Source of the DNA: an uncultured Brachyspira sp.
GTDB lineage: Bacteria; Spirochaetota; Brachyspiria; Brachyspirales; Brachyspiraceae
Assembly: GCF_944390845.1 (NCBI RefSeq)
Contig: NZ_CALXRM010000006.1
Location: forward strand, 1 to 64,000
Direction: 5' to 3'
DNA length: 64,000 bases
Part shown: piece by piece, positions 34,200 through 42,663 of the stretch
Position numbering within the stretch: position 1 is the stretch's first letter
Layout of the letters: each line of letters opens with the position of its first letter
Translations under genes and position numbers: made by a program
Notes under the pieces: generated by a model
Told to the model about the DNA's origin: nothing
The model's input: the letters and a program-made list of their open reading frames with translations, nothing else
Databases searched by the model: none

Positions 34200-35381
34200 A
34201 TGATAAAAAATATTATTGCTATTATATTCTTCTTATCCTTATTAATTTCATGTTCCGACAATGAAGCAAATAAAAAAGAAGAAGAAAAAATTCCTGAGCC
34301 GCCTGAAAGTATTAAATTGGTATTTACTGGTGATATAATGACTCACCCTACTATAGTTAAGGCTTTTGAAAGTAATGATGTTTTAATAGATTTAAAAGAT
34401 TACTTTCAAGGAGACATTGTATTTGCCAATTTAGAATTTGTTGTTAATACCAATAAACCTCCTATGCCTTATCCTGAATTTAATGGTTCATTGGATTATT
34501 TAAAATATTTTTTCAATTATTTTAATACATTTTCTATTGCCAATAACCATGCCTATGACCAAGGGGCTCAAGCAGAATCAGAAACGGTTGCTGAGCTTCA
34601 TAGAAATAATAAATTAACTTTAGGAGGTTCTACTAATTCTCCTAGCATAGCTCCTATCATAACAAATATTAACAATGTGCCTCTTTTCATATCAGCATAT
34701 ACAATGCTTGATAATGGATTAAGTCATAAAACAAATAAAAATGATCATTTCTATTTTATGAATTTTTTCCCTAAACAAGAAGATTTAATAGAAAAAGTAA
34801 AATCAGATTTGGCACTTGCTACAAACAATGAAATAAAAATAATATCTCTTCATTTCGGATTAGAATATACAACTGCTCCTGAAGAAAAAACAAAAGAAAC
34901 TGCAAGAGCTTTAATAGAAAATGGAGTTGACATAATAGTAGGACATCACCCGCATGTTCCTAGACCTGTAGAAATATATGAAGGTACAAATCATAGCGGC
35001 ATAATAATATATTCTTTAGGAAATTTTATAGCAAACCACAAAGGAAGATATCCTTATCTTGATATAGGTACTGTTGTTTCATTAGAAATTAATGAAAATA
35101 AAGAAATTAATTTTTCTTATGTGCCAACTTATTATGCATTCTTCAAGAAAAGCGGATTTGATTTTGTTATGAAGCCTATCAAAGAAGATCCTAATATAAA
35201 TATGCCTACTCTATCAAGCAATCATATTTATAGTGCTTATGATACCAATGCGATAAAAAAAGGTTATGAACTTATACATAATTTTTACTCTCCTCTAACG
35301 AATGAAAAAGTAAAAACTATGTTTGCTGATAATATAACTAATAACAGCATTGTATCTAATAATAGTTTAGCTCATAGATAA
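34200..35381 (+). CDS. CapA family (poly-gamma-glutamate capsule-type) lipoprotein
   Basis: A lipoprotein signal ends LLISC (C18), followed by a CapA/PgsA metallophosphatase-fold domain: LVFTGDIMTHPTIVKAF, GDIVFANLEFVV, SIANNHAYDQGAQA, ISLHFGLEYTTAPEEKT and DIIVGHHPHVPRPVEIYEG. The metal-binding Asp, Asn and His positions of the calcineurin-like fold are kept. In Bacillus this family helps make or attach poly-gamma-glutamate, but most members stand alone with unknown polymer targets, as here (no pgsB/C nearby). It ends the operon that begins at 31527. Confidence 0.9.
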   Translation: MIKNIIAIIFFLSLLISCSDNEANKKEEEKIPEPPESIKLVFTGDIMTHPTIVKAFESNDVLIDLKDYFQGDIVFANLEFVVNTNKPPMPYPEFNGSLDYLKYFFNYFNTFSIANNHAYDQGAQAESETVAELHRNNKLTLGGSTNSPSIAPIITNINNVPLFISAYTMLDNGLSHKTNKNDHFYFMNFFPKQEDLIEKVKSDLALATNNEIKIISLHFGLEYTTAPEEKTKETARALIENGVDIIVGHHPHVPRPVEIYEGTNHSGIIIYSLGNFIANHKGRYPYLDIGTVVSLEINENKEINFSYVPTYYAFFKKSGFDFVMKPIKEDPNINMPTLSSNHIYSAYDTNAIKKGYELIHNFYSPLTNEKVKTMFADNITNNSIVSNNSLAHR

Positions 35382-35701
35382 TTTATAATACTATAGAAAA
35401 TACAAATAGCTTCATTAACGCACGGTAAATAAAATTATATTTACTTATTAGATTATAATTCAAAACAATCATATATAAAAAAATTTTATTCTGCGTGCGT
35501 TGTATAGATTATAAATTTAAACTAAATTTGGGTGGGTGTTTTTAAATTCTAATTAAAATAATAAAAAATAAGAAAAACATAAATTCAAAACTAAATTAAC
35601 AAATCTAAAGGGCGGGCAATGAAAATAAGTTTTAAAACTTTATTTACATACCATGCCATTTAGTACTTGCAATAATGATTATGTTATAATAAAAATATAA
35701 A
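35382..35701. other. Non-coding region between CapA gene and RiPP operon
   Basis: No gene is seen. AACGCAC (35419) and GTGCGTT (35497) are inverted copies about 70 bp apart. Two G-rich tracts, GGGTGGGTG (35531) and GGGCGGGCA (35611), stand out in otherwise A/T-rich DNA. An imperfect hairpin AAATAAGTTTT/AAAACTTTATTT (about 35625-35650) may terminate both converging operons. These could mark an old recombination junction, but that is a guess. Confidence 0.5.
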
Positions 35702-38700
35702 TTAATCTATTAAAATAGTATTAGTTTCACTCAATATTTTTATATACTTATCTAAAAGACTTCTAATTTTTTTATCATTAACTGAATCAATATTTTTTAT
35801 ATATAAATACGTACCATATAAATTATTTCTTAAATAAGATATAAATAATAATAATGTTTTATCTATATCCTTAATAGATGATACATTGGTATTAAAACTA
35901 TATTTATTAAAACCAAATTCCAACATAACATCAATAACACTAATAATATTATCTAAATATATATTTGTAATTTTTTTATTTTTTATTAATTTAGATAATT
36001 CTTCAAAATTTAAATTTATAAAATCACTAAAACTAATTTTATCTAATAATTTATAATCTAAATAATCCTTATCAATTAATTTTCCTTCACACAAAGTACA
36101 TTCAACATTTTTTCTGCTTGATTTGATATTGTTAATAAGGTTTTCATCTGGAAAATATTTACCCTGTGTAATTAATAATGGTATTATTCCCTGCCAGTAT
36201 ACATTTTTTCCATCTATTTTAAATACTTTCGAAAAATCACCGTATAGAAGTAAATACTTATCTTCATCTGACATTTTATCAAAATCTTTATCTATTTCAT
36301 TATTATATATCTTTTTTAATTGTTTTACAGCTTCAGAATAATTTGAAATCTCTTTTAGAAATTTTAAAATAGACTTATTTAAAATATTCTTATCAAATAT
36401 TAAATTTAAATCTATCTCATCAACACTGCCGCTACCATAACATAATTTACATTTACCAACTTTACTATCGACATCAAAAACATTCAATAATAAATTTCTA
36501 TTATCTCTATTTTCAGAAAATGCTAAAGATATCATATCTTTAATATTAAGTAAATCTATAATTGAAGATGATTTTAAATATCTATTTTTAATATTATTAA
36601 AATCTATTATATTTATAATAGGTAAATATGTTTCATTTTCATAAATTTCATCATTGTGCTCATAATTAGGAAAAATAGAACTAATATATTCTGTATTTGA
36701 ATATTTAGCTAATTTTTCAAACAGATTAGTATTATTTATTTTATTAATATCAAATTCATTAATCTTAGTTTCAAATATAATTTTTTGATTATTTACTTGT
36801 TTTATATTATCTATTTTTTTATTTTCATTTTTAATTTTACTCTTATTTTTTACAGCAATAGTTGTAGGAGTATCACAATTTAAAAAATCATCTAATTTAC
36901 CGCAATAAAGCAAATATCCTCCATCATCTCCTGCTTTAGGCCCTATTTCAATAATATAATCTGTTTGCAAAATAAAATCTAAATTATGTTCTACATTTAT
37001 TATTGTATTATTATTTTTTTGTATATCTCTCAACATTTCAAGTAATACTCTAATATCTTTATTATGTAAACCGCTTGTAGGTTCGTCTAATACTATAATA
37101 TTATTTTTTAACTCATTAGAGAAAATATGAACAAGTTTTAAACGTTGATATTCACCTTTGGATAAACTAGAAGCACTTCTATTTAATGTTAAATGTCCTA
37201 TTCCTATTTCAATGCATTTTTTAAAAATATTATTAAAAGTTTTATTATCCGATAAAATATCATATAATTCAATAATTGAAAAATTTAACAAATCATCTAT
37301 ATTATAACCTTTATATTTATATTTTAATGTTTCATCATCAAATCTTTTACCTAAACATTTAGGACACATACCTAAATATTCATTATAAACACTTTTTATA
37401 ATTCCATTTCCATTACATAAAGTGCATTTTCCTTTATTTGAATTTAAAGAAAATATTACACTGTCTGTTTTTGAAAGCCCAAAAAGATTAGAAATTAATT
37501 CTGTTAATTCTAAAATAGAACATACATTTGAATTACTTGATCTTGCATATAATGATTGTGATAGATAAAATATTGAAGTATTTTTTTTATTTATATTATT
37601 ATTTTCGCAAAATGGAATTAGATGATTCTTTATAAAACTGGATTTTCCGCTTCCTGATACACCGCATACAGCAGTTAAAGAATATAAAGGTATATCCACA
37701 TTAAAATTTTTTAAGTTGTTAGAATTACAATTACTAATTTTAAGCATTTTATCTGACAATATATTATATTTATTTTTATCATTATCAATAATACTGCTAT
37801 TCTCTTTTAAGTATAATACTGTTGGAGTTTTATATTTATCTATATTGTATATATAGTCTTGAAATAATAAATTACCGCCATATTTTCCAGCACCCTCACC
37901 TATATCTATAATATAATCACAAAATGTCAATATATCTTTATTATGCTCTATTATAATTATAGTATTTCCTTTTTCCTTAATTTTATTAAACAAATTTATT
38001 AAATCCTTTATATCAGATGAATGCAAGCCTGATGTTGGTTCATCTAATATAATCATACTATTAGATATAGATAATGATATATAAGAACATAATCTTATCC
38101 TTTGAACTTCTCCTCCGCTCAAAGTTTTGCTTAATCTATTCAAATTGAGATATCCGCATGACATCATATTATATATATTTAAATTATTTTTTAAAATTTT
38201 TAATTCTGTAGTTAGACTATTGTCATTTGACAATTCTATCATATTGCTTATAACATTATATAATTGATTAATTGATAATTTTAATAAATCTCCAATAGAA
38301 TAATCAAATAATTTTATATTAAATACAATATTATCAATTCTAGTGCCGTTACAAGAACTGCAAATCTTTTTTTCTATTAGAGGTTCAATATATTTTAATC
38401 CTTTTCCTTTCAAATAACCTTCTATTAAAGAATTAACAATACCATTAAAATTCAGTACATATTCTATACCTCTTACTTTATATTTTATAATATCATTTCC
38501 GCCGTAAAATAATAAATGTTTCTGATTATCATCTAAATTTGAGAATTTAGCTTTAGAGGTAAATCCGTAATGTTTTGCAAATATTTCTATATCCTGTACA
38601 GTAGTATTTGAATATTGTACTCCTTTGTCACTTACAAATTTAATAGCACCTGATATAATAGATTTATTTTCATCATTCAATAATTTTAAATAATCTATAG

Positions 38701-39508
38701 TTATTTCTTCACCGCTTCCACTACATTTACGGCAAGCACCTCCGCCATTATTAAAATCAATATTAAATGAAAATCTTTTATGCAATTTTCTTTCAATTAT
38801 ACTATTACATGAACTGCATATAGTATGAGTTTTTGGATTAATAGCAGAATACAACTTAGGTATATCAATAAGCACTTCTAAATTCAATTTATTATAAATA
38901 TTTTTTATTATATTTTTAATATTTTTACTTGGCTTATCTAATAATATAGTAATATATCTTGCTGTCTTTTTATTCTTAGTTTCTTTCTTATCCTTATTAA
39001 AATATTTCAATTCTTTTATTTTAATAATTTCATTTATAGAATTAAAACATTCATCTATATTATCAGCCATTTCCATTTCTATTAATAAATTAAAATCATA
39101 ATTTTCTATTACAGTAAAAATATCATCATTAACCTTATTACCGCAATTACAGCAATACAAATCTGCATATTCAACAAATATATTTCTCAAATTCTTTAAT
39201 ATTCCTGAAATTGTACCTAATGTAGAATTTCTATTATTTATAGAATTTTTTACTTCTATCCATATAGCAGGAGGATTATTATTTATGCTTGCCACATCTG
39301 TTACATTATCATCTATTAATTCATTTCTTAAAGACTTATTTTTATTTATTAAAAATTCTTTATATGAATATTGAGCTATTATATCTCTAGCCAATGTAGT
39401 TTTACCGCTTCCTGATACACCTGTAATAGCTATTATTTTATTTAAAGGAATGTCAATTGATATATTATTCAAATTATTTTTTCTAGCATTATTAACTTTT
39501 ATACACAT
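35702..39508 (-). CDS. UvrA-like ABC protein with a third, degenerate UvrA half-module
   Basis: The 1268-residue protein has both UvrA ATPase cassettes. Walker A1 is GVSGSGKTT (30-38), with LSGGE (463-467) and ILDEPTSGLH (487-496). Walker A2 is GVSGSGKSS (616-624), with LSKGE (782-786) and VLDEPTSGLH (806-815). Zinc pairs are C231/C234 with C259/C262, C383/C386, and C695/C698 with C715/C718. Uniquely, residues about 910-1268 look like a third UvrA half-module: CKLCYGSG (C1020/C1023), ECTLCEG (C1137/C1140) and a collapsed signature/Walker B end, with no Walker A. Canonical UvrA has about 940 residues. It ends the RiPP operon, 17 bp after the methyltransferase. A role in immunity or DNA binding is inferred, not standard excision repair. 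Confidence 0.85.
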   Translation of the reverse strand: MCIKVNNARKNNLNNISIDIPLNKIIAITGVSGSGKTTLARDIIAQYSYKEFLINKNKSLRNELIDDNVTDVASINNNPPAIWIEVKNSINNRNSTLGTISGILKNLRNIFVEYADLYCCNCGNKVNDDIFTVIENYDFNLLIEMEMADNIDECFNSINEIIKIKELKYFNKDKKETKNKKTARYITILLDKPSKNIKNIIKNIYNKLNLEVLIDIPKLYSAINPKTHTICSSCNSIIERKLHKRFSFNIDFNNGGGACRKCSGSGEEITIDYLKLLNDENKSIISGAIKFVSDKGVQYSNTTVQDIEIFAKHYGFTSKAKFSNLDDNQKHLLFYGGNDIIKYKVRGIEYVLNFNGIVNSLIEGYLKGKGLKYIEPLIEKKICSSCNGTRIDNIVFNIKLFDYSIGDLLKLSINQLYNVISNMIELSNDNSLTTELKILKNNLNIYNMMSCGYLNLNRLSKTLSGGEVQRIRLCSYISLSISNSMIILDEPTSGLHSSDIKDLINLFNKIKEKGNTIIIIEHNKDILTFCDYIIDIGEGAGKYGGNLLFQDYIYNIDKYKTPTVLYLKENSSIIDNDKNKYNILSDKMLKISNCNSNNLKNFNVDIPLYSLTAVCGVSGSGKSSFIKNHLIPFCENNNINKKNTSIFYLSQSLYARSSNSNVCSILELTELISNLFGLSKTDSVIFSLNSNKGKCTLCNGNGIIKSVYNEYLGMCPKCLGKRFDDETLKYKYKGYNIDDLLNFSIIELYDILSDNKTFNNIFKKCIEIGIGHLTLNRSASSLSKGEYQRLKLVHIFSNELKNNIIVLDEPTSGLHNKDIRVLLEMLRDIQKNNNTIINVEHNLDFILQTDYIIEIGPKAGDDGGYLLYCGKLDDFLNCDTPTTIAVKNKSKIKNENKKIDNIKQVNNQKIIFETKINEFDINKINNTNLFEKLAKYSNTEYISSIFPNYEHNDEIYENETYLPIINIIDFNNIKNRYLKSSSIIDLLNIKDMISLAFSENRDNRNLLLNVFDVDSKVGKCKLCYGSGSVDEIDLNLIFDKNILNKSILKFLKEISNYSEAVKQLKKIYNNEIDKDFDKMSDEDKYLLLYGDFSKVFKIDGKNVYWQGIIPLLITQGKYFPDENLINNIKSSRKNVECTLCEGKLIDKDYLDYKLLDKISFSDFINLNFEELSKLIKNKKITNIYLDNIISVIDVMLEFGFNKYSFNTNVSSIKDIDKTLLLFISYLRNNLYGTYLYIKNIDSVNDKKIRSLLDKYIKILSETNTILID

Positions 39509-39525
39509 AATAATCTCCTGCCTGA

Positions 39526-40263
39526 CTATTGATTTTGATAATTCTTTTCTAATACCAAAATATATGAATCTACAAAATCATCTTTAGGTATTCCAACATC
39601 TTTTAATATAATTTTATCTTTTATAAGATAAACTATATTATAAAAAAACTTATTAGACAAATTAATAATATAATCAAATATATCTTTATATAGATCAATA
39701 AATATAACTATAATTTTAGAATCATCATATAATAATTCATTTGATTTAATAAAAATATTAGTAAGCAAATCATTATTATTTTTATCTTTACAACTATTAG
39801 TTAAATATTCAAAGTCTTTAGGACTAATTTTAGAGTTTAAAACATCATTAATATTTATTTTATAATCTAATATCTCTACATCAAGAGGGGGATTGGTTAC
39901 TATAAAATTATACTTTGATTCAAAACTATATGTTGAAAAATCATTTCTAATAATATTTATAGAATTATTAAATCCATATTTATCAATATTTTTTTTCATT
40001 AAATTACATGCTATGCCATTAATCTCTATACCATCAATTTTATATCCACTATCAGCCAAAAATATACTTATAGGACCAACTCCGCATCCAACATCTAAAC
40101 CATAACCATTAATATAATTTAAAGATTTTAATTCATCAAAATGTTTACAAAATAGTTCAGCTATTCCAAATTTATTACAAACTAAATCATTAACAAATAA
40201 TTCATAATTTTTATCTTTGCATTTTAAAATAGATATAAATTCATTATTAATTTTATTTTGCAT
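39526..40263 (-). CDS. Class I SAM-dependent methyltransferase, HemK-like
   Basis: A 245-residue Rossmann-fold methyltransferase. Motif I is LDVGCGVGP (56-64), the acidic ribose-binding residue is in IDGIEINGIAC, and motif IV is NPPL (124-127). NPPY/NPPL motifs mark enzymes that methylate nitrogen of Gln, Asn, adenine or guanine. It overlaps the preceding radical SAM gene by 11 nt and lies 17 bp before the UvrA-like gene, so it belongs to the RiPP operon. I infer that it modifies the peptide (side-chain nitrogen or terminus), but DNA or RNA methylation is not excluded. Confidence 0.82.
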   Translation of the reverse strand: MQNKINNEFISILKCKDKNYELFVNDLVCNKFGIAELFCKHFDELKSLNYINGYGLDVGCGVGPISIFLADSGYKIDGIEINGIACNLMKKNIDKYGFNNSINIIRNDFSTYSFESKYNFIVTNPPLDVEILDYKININDVLNSKISPKDFEYLTNSCKDKNNNDLLTNIFIKSNELLYDDSKIIVIFIDLYKDIFDYIINLSNKFFYNIVYLIKDKIILKDVGIPKDDFVDSYILVLEKNYQNQ

Positions 40264-41155
40264 TTACAGCCCTTGATACTAATGACAAAAACTCTAATTT
40301 ATTCTCTTTCCATACACCATTACATATATCATTAAAAATACAATCATTACAAAAATCAGCTTTAAATCTCATACCGCAATTAACTTGATTATAATCGAAA
40401 ATATTTTCTTCTTTACTGTTAAATAAATCTATCTCTGAAGGCCAATAACTTTCTCCTACACATTTTTCTATACCACGCATCAAACAGTACGGAATTCCCT
40501 CAGTGCGTAAAATATCATGAGAAATATAATTTTTTATAGAATGTATAGCTTTAACTGTTTCTAAAAGTCCTACCGCATATTCATTATCATTTTCAATATG
40601 CATAACAGAGAACTGCATTATAGAAGGTCTAAAAGGAATAACTATATCAATAATACTTTTTAATTCATTTATGTTTAAAGAAGAAACAACGGTATTTGTA
40701 TATATATTAGCATTAGTATACAATGATATATTATCAATAGACTTCATTAATCTATAAAAAGAATCACTATTTCCTGTAGCTTTATTATGTGTATCAGCAG
40801 AAGCACCAAGTATAGAAAATGATATAGAAAAATTATAATTATCTGATATAGTTTTTATTGATTTAAATAATTCAGAATTAATATCTATAAGACCATAACC
40901 ATTACTCTGAATTATAATTTTTTTATATCCAATTTCAACAGCATAATTTAATATAGAAATTAATTTTTCCTCATCGTATGTTGGTTCTCCTCCGGAAAGG
41001 ATAATTGATTTACATCCTCTATTATATCCATCAAAAACAGCATCTTTTAATTCTTCTAAACTTATATTAATATTTTTATAACTATTTGAAAAACAATAAC
41101 TGCATTTATTACAGCATTGATATGTAACTTTAATATTTAGGCAATGCATAATCAA
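40253..41155 (-). CDS. Radical SAM enzyme with C-terminal cysteine cluster
   Basis: A 300-residue radical SAM protein. The cluster motif CX3CX2C is C14/C18/C21 (CCNKCSYC), with GGEP at 55-58. A C-terminal group C260-x8-C269-x2-C272-x5-C278 (NCGMRFKADFCNDCIFNDIC) could hold an auxiliary Fe-S cluster of Twitch/SPASM kind. It overlaps the upstream radical SAM gene by 26 nt and the downstream methyltransferase by 11 nt, so the genes are tightly coupled. It probably installs a second modification on the 50-residue precursor, or acts in partnership with the first enzyme. The reaction is not predictable. Confidence 0.85.
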   Translation of the reverse strand: MIMHCLNIKVTYQCCNKCSYCFSNSYKNINISLEELKDAVFDGYNRGCKSIILSGGEPTYDEEKLISILNYAVEIGYKKIIIQSNGYGLIDINSELFKSIKTISDNYNFSISFSILGASADTHNKATGNSDSFYRLMKSIDNISLYTNANIYTNTVVSSLNINELKSIIDIVIPFRPSIMQFSVMHIENDNEYAVGLLETVKAIHSIKNYISHDILRTEGIPYCLMRGIEKCVGESYWPSEIDLFNSKEENIFDYNQVNCGMRFKADFCNDCIFNDICNGVWKENKLEFLSLVSRAVNAK

Positions 41156-42293
41156 CTACTCTTTTCATATAGCAAATCAATTGATGTTTTGCTGCACAAT
41201 ACTCTGAAAATAAATTTTCTGATTTTTTTAAGAATATATCTCTATAAGCTATACAGCCGCCATGACATATATTATTGATATCACATTTACTGCAAGCTGT
41301 ATGTATTTGATTATAAAAATTTTCATATTGAGGATATTTTTTAGAAGAAATAAATTCTTTCAATTCATCGTCTGTAACATTTTCTAAATTGCAGATATAT
41401 GCTTTATCTCTTTGTATATCATGTTCAAAGGAATCGCAAAACCATAATTCTTTATTAGGAAACAATGTCAAAAAATTATTACATTTATCCTCTCTATATT
41501 CACACCAAGTAACCAAAGTACCTGTTATAGAAGCTATAATACTAGCTATAGGATCTATAACAAATTTTTTATATAAATCTTTATTTTTTCCAATATCTTT
41601 AATCCATAAATCAAAAATATCTATCATAAATTTAGAATATTCAAGAGGTCTTATACCATCTTTTTCAACTTCTCCATAATTATTAAAATTATAACATGGA
41701 ATAAATTTAACAAAATGAGGCTGTATACTTCTTAAAAAAGTATAAATTTCATTGGCATATTTTAAATTATGGTTACCTACAACTGTTATAGTTGTAATTT
41801 TTATATCAGTTTTTTTTAATAAATTAATAGCATTAAAGACATTATCAAATGAACTTTTATTATTTTTAGTCAATCTTGCTTTATCATTGACTATTTTATC
41901 ACCATCTATACTTATACTTATGATTCTTTCACTAAATATATCTTGATATTTTGAAAATAATTCTATCCATTCATCGTCTATTAATGAGCCATTAGTTTGC
42001 AAGGCTACATTAAATAATACATTATATTTAGAATTGACTTCTACTAATTTGGAACAAAATTCATCAAAAAATTTCTTACCTTTTAATAAAGGCTCTCCGC
42101 CATGAAGCATCCATAAAATTTCAGAATCAGGGAACAAAATTGCAAACTTTTCAATAAGCCCGCATAAAAATTCTATTGACATAGAGGTTAAATTCAAATC
42201 TTCATATTCATCTCTTTTAAACTCATAACAATAAGAACATCTTAAATTACAATCTAAAGTAGTTTTTAAAACTATGGTTTTTATTAACCCCAT
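41130..42293 (-). CDS. Radical SAM/SPASM peptide maturase
   Basis: A 387-residue enzyme with CX3CX2C at C15/C19/C22 (CNLRCSYC), LHGGEPLL (63-70) and a full SPASM domain: C264, C271, C286, then C334/C337/C343/C347 (CSKCDINNICHGGC) and C366. This layout occurs in anaerobic sulfatase-maturase-like and RiPP maturases (for example FxsB-type cyclophane-forming enzymes). It starts 8 bp after the precursor stop codon with no clear Shine-Dalgarno, suggesting coupled translation. The neighbour and the aromatic-X-Asn/Lys core argue for peptide crosslinking rather than sulfatase activation; no sulfatase is nearby. Confidence 0.88.
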   Translation of the reverse strand: MGLIKTIVLKTTLDCNLRCSYCYEFKRDEYEDLNLTSMSIEFLCGLIEKFAILFPDSEILWMLHGGEPLLKGKKFFDEFCSKLVEVNSKYNVLFNVALQTNGSLIDDEWIELFSKYQDIFSERIISISIDGDKIVNDKARLTKNNKSSFDNVFNAINLLKKTDIKITTITVVGNHNLKYANEIYTFLRSIQPHFVKFIPCYNFNNYGEVEKDGIRPLEYSKFMIDIFDLWIKDIGKNKDLYKKFVIDPIASIIASITGTLVTWCEYREDKCNNFLTLFPNKELWFCDSFEHDIQRDKAYICNLENVTDDELKEFISSKKYPQYENFYNQIHTACSKCDINNICHGGCIAYRDIFLKKSENLFSEYCAAKHQLICYMKRVVDYALPKY

Positions 42294-42301
42294 AAAATTT
42301 A

Positions 42302-42454
42302 TTAATAACCTTTATTATATTTAGCGTAATTACCCCAGCATGCAAGCTCACTTCTAGTTTCATCATTCTTTATAGTTTCTATAAAAGAGGCTAATGCTGC
42401 TATCTCTTCCTTTGAATATTTTTCATTGATTACAACATTATCAATATCATTCAT
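42302..42454 (-). CDS. Putative RiPP precursor peptide, 50 residues
   Basis: Translation of the minus strand gives a peptide starting MNDIDNVVINEKYS and ending SELACWGNYAKYNKGY. The first 38 residues are acidic and helix-prone (leader-like). The last 12 (C39-Y50) form a distinct core: W40-G-N42, Y43-A-K45 and Y46-N-K48 are three consecutive aromatic-X-Asn/Lys triplets, with a Cys in front. A GGAGG site (revcomp of CCTCC at 42461-42465) lies 6 nt before the ATG, below a good promoter. It directly precedes two radical SAM genes. The gene is too short for default gene calling and is easily missed. Coding potential is strong; the RiPP role is inferred. Confidence 0.8.
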   Translation of the reverse strand: MNDIDNVVINEKYSKEEIAALASFIETIKNDETRSELACWGNYAKYNKGY

Positions 42455-42477
42455 ATTTATCCTCCAGACATTCTATG

Positions 42478-42505
42478 ATTATAACATATAGGTATATTAT
42501 TACAA
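42478..42505 (-). promoter_or_regulatory. Promoter of the RiPP operon
   Basis: On the minus strand TTGTAA (42500-42505) is followed by 16 nt and a perfect TATAAT (42478-42483). It predicts an approximately 17-nt leader containing the GGAGG site of the precursor gene. Confidence 0.65.
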
Positions 42506-42551
42506 GCCATAAAAGCAAAAATATATTTTATTTTTTAAGCATATAAACATT

Positions 42552-42597
42552 AAATGTAATCTAAATATTATAATTAAATAATATTTAGATTACATTT
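42552..42597. promoter_or_regulatory. Perfect 19-bp palindrome between divergent promoters
   Basis: Arms 42552-42570 (AAATGTAATCTAAATATTA) and 42579-42597 are exact inverted copies around TAATTAAA. The site lies between the RiPP promoter and the JAMM-DinG promoter, about 47 bp from the former's -35 and 27 bp from the latter's. It could be a regulator-binding site or a cruciform. A terminator role is possible (T-run follows) but no gene reads into it. Confidence 0.6.
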
Positions 42598-42623
42598 TTA
42601 TATAAATAATAATTTTTTAATTA

Positions 42624-42652
42624 TTGACAAAGATTTCGATATATACTATATT
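42624..42652 (+). promoter_or_regulatory. Promoter of the JAMM-DinG gene (near-leaderless)
   Basis: A perfect TTGACA (42624-42629), 17-nt spacer and TATATT (42647-42652) place the start site at about 42659, only a few nucleotides before the ATG at 42664. No Shine-Dalgarno fits between them. Confidence 0.65.
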
Positions 42653-42663
42653 ATTATACTAAT

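What the first reader, a model, noticed from the sequence alone, without database searches (positions are those of the whole stretch)
39526..42454. Undescribed-looking RiPP system: 50-residue precursor, two radical SAM enzymes and a HemK-like methyltransferase
Seen: a short gene with promoter TTGTAA-N16-TATAAT and GGAGG site, followed by four genes spaced 8, -26, -11 and 17 bp. The peptide core CWGNYAKYNKGY contains three contiguous aromatic-X-Asn/Lys triplets (WGN, YAK, YNK). Known: radical SAM/SPASM enzymes of the three-residue cyclophane type join an aromatic ring to the beta carbon of the residue two positions on, often Asn, Lys or Arg. Inference: the product has up to three cyclophanes plus further changes by the second radical SAM enzyme and methyltransferase. 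C39 leaves thioether chemistry open as an alternative.
Basis: partly seen in the sequence, partly recalled or inferred. Interest (0 to 1): 0.92.

Follow-up and report, generated by a model that had tools for sequence, protein, structure and literature searches.

The report
Radical SAM peptide cluster with UvrA-like protein

Summary
On the minus strand a 50-aa gene, SPASM radical SAM enzyme, second radical SAM enzyme, PrmC/HemK-like methyltransferase and 1268-aa UvrA-like ATPase form one operon with the stated spacings, promoter and ribosome-binding site. Sister genomes show it is a self-contained insertion of about 7 kb between two conserved genes, so the UvrA-like gene belongs to it. Among 393 sampled Spirochaetota, the rSAM1 clade occurs in only one other genome, G012 (same genus). 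There a different cluster repeats the kit: a 44-aa gene beside an rSAM1 relative, an HxsC-like rSAM and a UvrA-like protein with the same third module. Both UvrA-like proteins lack a detectable UvrB-interaction domain; the resident tandem UvrA keeps it. This resembles UvrA-type self-resistance proteins such as Ecm16, so the product may act on DNA (inference). rSAM1 is not a sulfatase maturase by motif or tree, and belongs to no named cyclophane family. Three contiguous Aro-X-Asn/Lys triplets are rare, and triceptide-type cross-links remain the best guess. But the 44-aa partner peptide does not conserve the triplets and is not detectably homologous. RiPP cluster: likely. Cyclophanes: plausible, untested. 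UvrA-like immunity: speculative. New variant of a known kind.

The parts
42478..42505 (-). sigma-70-type promoter TTGTAA-N16-TATAAT with extended TG
   Evidence: sequence
42302..42454 (-). putative RiPP precursor, 50 aa, MNDIDNVVINEKYSKEEIAALASFIETIKNDETRSELACWGNYAKYNKGY; putative core CWGNYAKYNKGY with triplets WGN, YAK, YNK
   Evidence: SD GGAGG; coding-like GC by codon position; triplets rare in background
41130..42293 (-). rSAM1: radical SAM/SPASM peptide-modifying enzyme, 387 aa
   Evidence: PF04055; NCBIfam scores; own clade with three G012 enzymes, 82/61 support; profile gap 541/502/416/356 then 149 bits
40253..41155 (-). rSAM2: radical SAM enzyme with C-terminal CxxCxxxxxCxGxW motif, HxsC-like, 300 aa
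   Evidence: TIGR03977 58 bits; 30% identical to the G012 enzyme; relatives in HxsB/C/D-type clusters
39526..40263 (-). PrmC/HemK-like class I methyltransferase (NPPL motif), 245 aa; no close relative in 29 family genomes
   Evidence: PF05175 8e-13, hemK_fam 7e-10
35702..39508 (-). UvrA-like ABC ATPase, 1268 aa: two intact nucleotide-binding domains, no detectable UvrB-interaction domain, extra degenerate third module with CxxC pairs
   Evidence: control
35662..42618 (.). inserted block absent from the orthologous site of sister genomes (approximate limits)
   Evidence: blastn against empty or short sites L162-L166, gaps
42552..42597 (.). perfect 20-nt inverted repeat between the two divergent promoters (operator or hairpin, role unknown)

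Best explanation
This is a five-gene mobile RiPP cassette. Shown: the operon structure, intact enzyme motifs, insertion as a block between a CapA-like gene and a DinG-like gene, and recurrence of the set small peptide gene + this rSAM1 clade + HxsC-like rSAM + UvrA-like ATPase in a second species of the genus. Inferred: rSAM1 binds the leader of the 50-residue peptide and joins aromatic rings to the beta carbons of the residue two positions on in the C-terminal core (most likely WGN, then YAK and YNK); rSAM2 makes a second, unknown radical modification; the PrmC-like enzyme methylates a planar nitrogen, most simply an Asn side-chain amide of the core. More speculative: the UvrA-like ATPase, which no longer shows the UvrB-docking domain, guards the producer's DNA from the peptide product by recognising product-bound DNA and dislodging it with ATP, in the manner suggested for Ecm16 and DrrC in echinomycin and daunorubicin producers.
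For: Operon and signals. Coding profile of the peptide gene and rarity of the triplets. rSAM1 lies outside the sulfatase-maturase clade (support 99/98) and outside the YhhB clade, together with the G012 enzymes, and its clade was found in two of 393 Spirochaetota genomes. UvrA paralogues beyond the resident tandem UvrA occur in the family only in the window genome and G012, both inside such clusters. The two UvrA-like proteins share 32% identity and the same third module. PF17760 (UvrB interaction) is not found in the window protein even at E<=10, but is found in both halves of the resident UvrA (8e-31 and 4e-14); in G012 the region is deleted. Ecm16 likewise lacks that domain (PMC10192343). 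The insertion contains exactly these five genes.
Against: Only one comparable cluster is known and its peptide is not detectably homologous, with triplets not conserved. rSAM1 passes no cyclophane-family cut-off. No peptidase or exporter lies in the cassette. In Ecm16 the insertion domain is needed for DNA binding; the window UvrA keeps it (PF17755), but the G012 protein has lost it from the first domain and keeps at best a weak copy in the third module. The G012 cluster has broken frames near A-tracts in rSAM_A and the HemN-like gene. No functional data.
Confidence: 0.45

Rival explanations
1. A cyclophane-type RiPP cluster in which the UvrA-like ATPase is not immunity but takes part in maturation, regulation or release of the peptide, or is a passenger DNA-repair gene.
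For: Position last in the operon with only 17 bp before it; the third module was seen only in this pair, suggesting a new function rather than copying of known resistance proteins; the DNA-binding insertion is lost from the first domain of the G012 protein.
Against: Both ABC sites and signature motifs are intact; the loss of the UvrB-interaction domain parallels known self-resistance proteins (PMC10192343).
Confidence: 0.3
2. Thioether chemistry: rSAM1 joins the single Cys39 to a neighbouring residue (ranthi- or sactipeptide).
For: One Cys stands at the start of the putative core; the PapB-type ranthipeptide model also scores (92 bits).
Against: Cys is absent from the G012 peptide; Cys-rich-peptide maturases score lower than cyclophane models; the ABC-linked thioether-type enzymes in the tree fall elsewhere.
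Confidence: 0.12
3. rSAM1 is a sulfatase-maturase relative that oxidises Cys39 or Ser35 to formylglycine.
For: The best single NCBIfam model is the anaerobic sulfatase maturase (213 bits); the best solved structures are the same enzyme.
Against: Below the family cut-off of 349 bits; lacks the KPxSxxCN...YCFY signature and falls outside the clade; SELACWGNY has no (C/S)xPxR motif; no sulfatase gene adjacent.
Confidence: 0.08
4. Not a RiPP: the small protein is a partner subunit and the radical enzymes act on another substrate, for example as a phage-defence set.
For: The same site carries an Eco57I-type restriction enzyme in G005 and an AAA gene with IetA-like score in G016; no exporter or protease in the cassette.
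Against: Short gene directly before a SPASM peptide-maturase-type enzyme in both clusters; aromatic-rich C-terminus; PADLOC matches only at superfamily level.
Confidence: 0.12

Closest known systems
Triceptide clusters with three-residue-cyclophane-forming enzymes (XncB, OscB/GrrM, YhhB, FxsB families)
   Same: Short precursor immediately upstream of a SPASM radical SAM enzyme; C-terminal Aro-X-Asn/basic triplets; YhhA from Rhizobium ends SYDRMHHRHNRS and its enzyme shares the cysteine-motif form.
   Different: Below all family cut-offs, separate clade; second radical SAM enzyme, PrmC-like methyltransferase and UvrA-like gene; Tyr-X-Lys triplets instead of Tyr/His-X-Arg.
UvrA-type self-resistance proteins (Ecm16, DrrC; UvrA2)
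   Same: UvrA fold with two ABC domains, UvrB-interaction domain not detectable, gene inside a biosynthetic cluster (PMC10192343).
   Different: Linked to a ribosomal peptide, not a non-ribosomal or polyketide intercalator; extra third degenerate module; in a spirochaete. No paper found in the searched library joins UvrA with a RiPP cluster.
His-Xaa-Ser (Hxs) system radical SAM enzyme HxsC
   Same: rSAM2 scores best against HxsC (58 bits), its G012 partner against HxsC4 and HxsC (108 and 90 bits); a SPASM rSAM nearby.
   Different: Far below cut-offs (268 and 500); no HxsB, HxsD or His-Xaa-Ser repeat peptide in the cassette.
Darobactin/dynobactin maturases DarE and DynA
   Same: rSAM1 scores 157 bits with DynA.
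   Different: Cut-off 450; no transporter in the cassette; different core motif.

Membership tests
Triceptides (three-residue cyclophanes) | SPASM radical SAM enzyme of a characterised 3-CyFE family | tested here: not met
   YhhB 156 of 445, XyeB 116 of 450, GrrM 109 of 310, FxsB 124 of 370 bits; separate clade
Triceptides (three-residue cyclophanes) | precursor with Aro-X-X triplets at the C-terminus, next to the enzyme | tested here: met
   WGN-YAK-YNK in the 50-mer, 8 bp upstream of rSAM1
Triceptides (three-residue cyclophanes) | triplets conserved among homologous precursors | tested here: inconclusive
   one comparable peptide, triplets not kept, homology not significant
Triceptides (three-residue cyclophanes) | C-C bond from the ring to the beta carbon, -2 Da each | not testable with these tools
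   needs co-expression and NMR/MS
Anaerobic sulfatase maturase | KPxSxxCNxxCxYCFY signature, family score, sulfatase substrate | tested here: not met
   213 of 349 bits; motif absent and outside the clade; no sulfatase nearby
UvrA-type self-resistance protein (Ecm16/DrrC/UvrA2) | two functional ABC domains of UvrA type | tested here: met
   motifs intact: Walker A at 30 and 616, signatures at 463 and 782, Walker B at 486 and 804; aligns with UvrA structures over 870 residues
UvrA-type self-resistance protein (Ecm16/DrrC/UvrA2) | loss of the UvrB-interaction domain | tested here: met
   PF17760 absent at E<=10 in the window region, present in the resident UvrA control; a diverged stretch with CxxC pairs remains in the window protein, deleted in G012
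UvrA-type self-resistance protein (Ecm16/DrrC/UvrA2) | insertion domain that binds product-loaded DNA | tested here: inconclusive
   PF17755 1.5e-14 at residues 274-365 of the window protein; weak third-module copy only in G012
UvrA-type self-resistance protein (Ecm16/DrrC/UvrA2) | confers resistance to the cluster's product | not testable with these tools
   needs product and assay
Hxs (His-Xaa-Ser) system | HxsB + HxsC + HxsD and a His-Xaa-Ser peptide | tested here: not met
   only an HxsC-like enzyme is present, below cut-off; no HxsD-like gene or repeat in the cassette
HemK/PrmC N5-glutamine methyltransferase | family score and NPPY motif | tested here: not met
   hemK_fam 38 of 115 bits; motif NPPL: class I N-methyltransferase only

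The most novel reading that the evidence does not exclude
A ribosomal, radical-cross-linked peptide that acts on DNA, made by a mobile cassette that carries its own UvrA-derived guard protein with a third module: a RiPP lineage with UvrA-type self-protection, possibly a chemical anti-phage or competition weapon traded through an insertion hot spot.
Probability: 0.25. Interest if true: 0.85.

Novelty: new variant of a known kind. Interest (0 to 1): 0.6.

Why it matters
If the product binds DNA, UvrA-like genes would become a resistance marker for finding DNA-acting ribosomal peptides, as they already are for intercalators made by other pathways (PMC10413001). The cassette also offers a separate SPASM clade and an HxsC-like partner enzyme whose chemistry is unknown, in a compact five-gene set that can be rebuilt in E. 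coli.

Tried and rejected
Virus contigs with the methyltransferase, the UvrA-like pair and the rSAM2 pair: nothing. Plasmids: rSAM1 hits are sulfatase maturases and other distant SPASM proteins, rSAM2 one weak MoaA, methyltransferase none. UvrA fragments in G005 and G002 were suspected further members but look like contig-end pieces of the resident tandem UvrA. rSAM2 relatives in G041/G053/G063/G078 were followed; they sit in Hxs-type clusters without a UvrA-like gene. Structure predictions of the methyltransferase and of the third UvrA module had mean pLDDT 36-37 and were not used. Leader homology between the two peptides was tested and not significant.

Full report
The window's minus strand carries five tightly packed genes: a 50-codon gene (42454-42302), a 387-aa radical SAM/SPASM enzyme (rSAM1), a 300-aa radical SAM enzyme (rSAM2), a 245-aa methyltransferase and a 1268-aa UvrA-like protein (39508-35702). 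A 10-of-12 promoter with extended TG lies before the small gene, which has a GGAGG site and the GC pattern by codon position of the window's other genes.

The C-terminus CWGNYAKYNKGY has three contiguous aromatic-X-Asn/Lys triplets. In 234,186 background positions such a run (with a wider choice of third residue) occurs 27 times, and no C-terminal 12-mer of the window's 50 larger ORFs has three triplets. Aro-Xaa-Asn is the published motif of strained cyclophane peptides (PMC9062424), and known enzymes also use Tyr/His-X-Arg or Tyr-X-Asp (PMC11002830).

Boundaries. The DinG-like gene on one side and the CapA-like gene on the other are conserved in the genus. In several relatives they are only about 70-110 bp apart, in two 511 bp, and in others the gap holds different cargo. 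By blastn the window matches the short sites up to about 35662 and again from 42619, so roughly 7 kb was inserted or replaced, containing these five genes and nothing else. This is the main reason to count the UvrA-like gene as part of the system. G005 carries an Eco57I-type restriction enzyme at the same site, so it is an insertion hot spot.

rSAM1. Its best family scores are the sulfatase maturase (213 bits, cut-off 349), DynA (157) and YhhB (156), all below cut-off. It lacks the sulfatase-maturase signature. A tree places it with three enzymes of genome G012, outside the sulfatase-maturase clade (99/98) and the YhhB clade (96/95); support for the shared clade itself is moderate (82/61) with long branches. 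A profile of this clade scores 541, 502, 416 and 356 bits for its own members and 149 or less for everything else in 393 Spirochaetota genomes. The profile was built from those members, so the gap is partly by construction, but it shows no further member was sampled.

The second cluster (G012, L035). A 44-aa gene with TTGACT-N16-TATAAT and a GAAGG site (sequence) is followed by an rSAM1 relative broken near an A-tract, a HemN-like gene with a thymidylate-kinase-like tail also broken, another SPASM enzyme, a 1050-aa UvrA-like protein and an HxsC-like rSAM2 relative. A further SPASM enzyme of the same clade lies beyond, in reverse. The shared set is thus small gene, rSAM1 clade, UvrA-like, HxsC-like. 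The methyltransferase is not shared; it has no relative in 29 family genomes above superfamily level.

rSAM2 scores best with HxsC (58 bits; its G012 partner 108 with HxsC4 and 90 with HxsC), and its other relatives in the phylum lie in Hxs-type clusters without UvrA-like genes. Its reaction is unknown.

The UvrA-like protein. All 29 family genomes match the resident UvrA, in most of them as one open frame of about 1,940 aa. Extra UvrA-like proteins were found only in the window genome and G012, both inside these clusters. Both ABC sites are intact. The UvrB-interaction domain is undetectable in the window protein even at E<=10 while both halves of the resident UvrA give 8e-31 and 4e-14; in G012 the region is gone. 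Both share a third, degenerate UvrA-like module. [quoted passage not shown] I therefore infer, without proof, that the product acts on DNA and that the UvrA-like protein guards the producer. The loss of the first-domain insertion in G012 is a point against a simple copy of the Ecm16 mechanism.

Commitment. RiPP cluster: about 0.8. Cyclophane-type cross-links on at least one triplet: about 0.5. UvrA-like as self-protection: about 0.4. The best explanation as a whole is given 0.45, weighted towards its core (a RiPP cassette with a UvrA-like component); the exact chemistry and the guard role are weaker. It is a new variant of a known kind rather than a new category.

Noticed in passing
window 35379-42663; loci L155-L166: The gap between the CapA-like and DinG-like genes is an insertion hot spot in this genus: nearly empty in some species, an Eco57I-type restriction enzyme in G005, an AAA gene (IetA-like score in G016) plus small genes in G002 and G016, several unrelated genes in G003, G019, G004 and G009.
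   Followed up: partly
L068:2380-5559, L100:4790-7727, L101:5132-5953: A short radical SAM protein (about 280 aa) recurs near the resident tandem UvrA, in G018 and G005 followed by a 677-769 aa partner; the G018 partner has no Pfam match.
   Followed up: partly
L167:108-5921 and other family genomes: The resident UvrA of this family is a head-to-tail tandem protein of about 1,940 aa.
   Followed up: partly
L035:6776-8590: HemN-like radical SAM gene running into a thymidylate-kinase-like domain inside the G012 cluster, with frame breaks near A-tracts (phase variation, decay or sequencing error).
   Followed up: partly
window 42552-42597: Perfect 20-nt inverted repeat between the divergent promoters of the cassette and the DinG-like gene.
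   Followed up: no
window 35417-35650: Repeat element with AACGCACGG...GCGTGCGTT arms and GGGTGGGTG, also present in the 511-bp gap of G020 and G012; possibly a mobile or regulatory repeat.
   Followed up: partly
L085, L088, L090, L091: Hxs-type clusters in distant Spirochaetota with three to five HxsC-like radical SAM genes in tandem.
   Followed up: no
L033:7831-9125: Moraxella oblonga: 56-aa peptide ending HTRYDRTHNRHNRGQ next to a YhhB-like enzyme, a likely triceptide cluster.
   Followed up: no
L169:5888-8312: Small Cetobacterium somerae plasmid with a radical SAM/SPASM gene followed by an MFS transporter.
   Followed up: no
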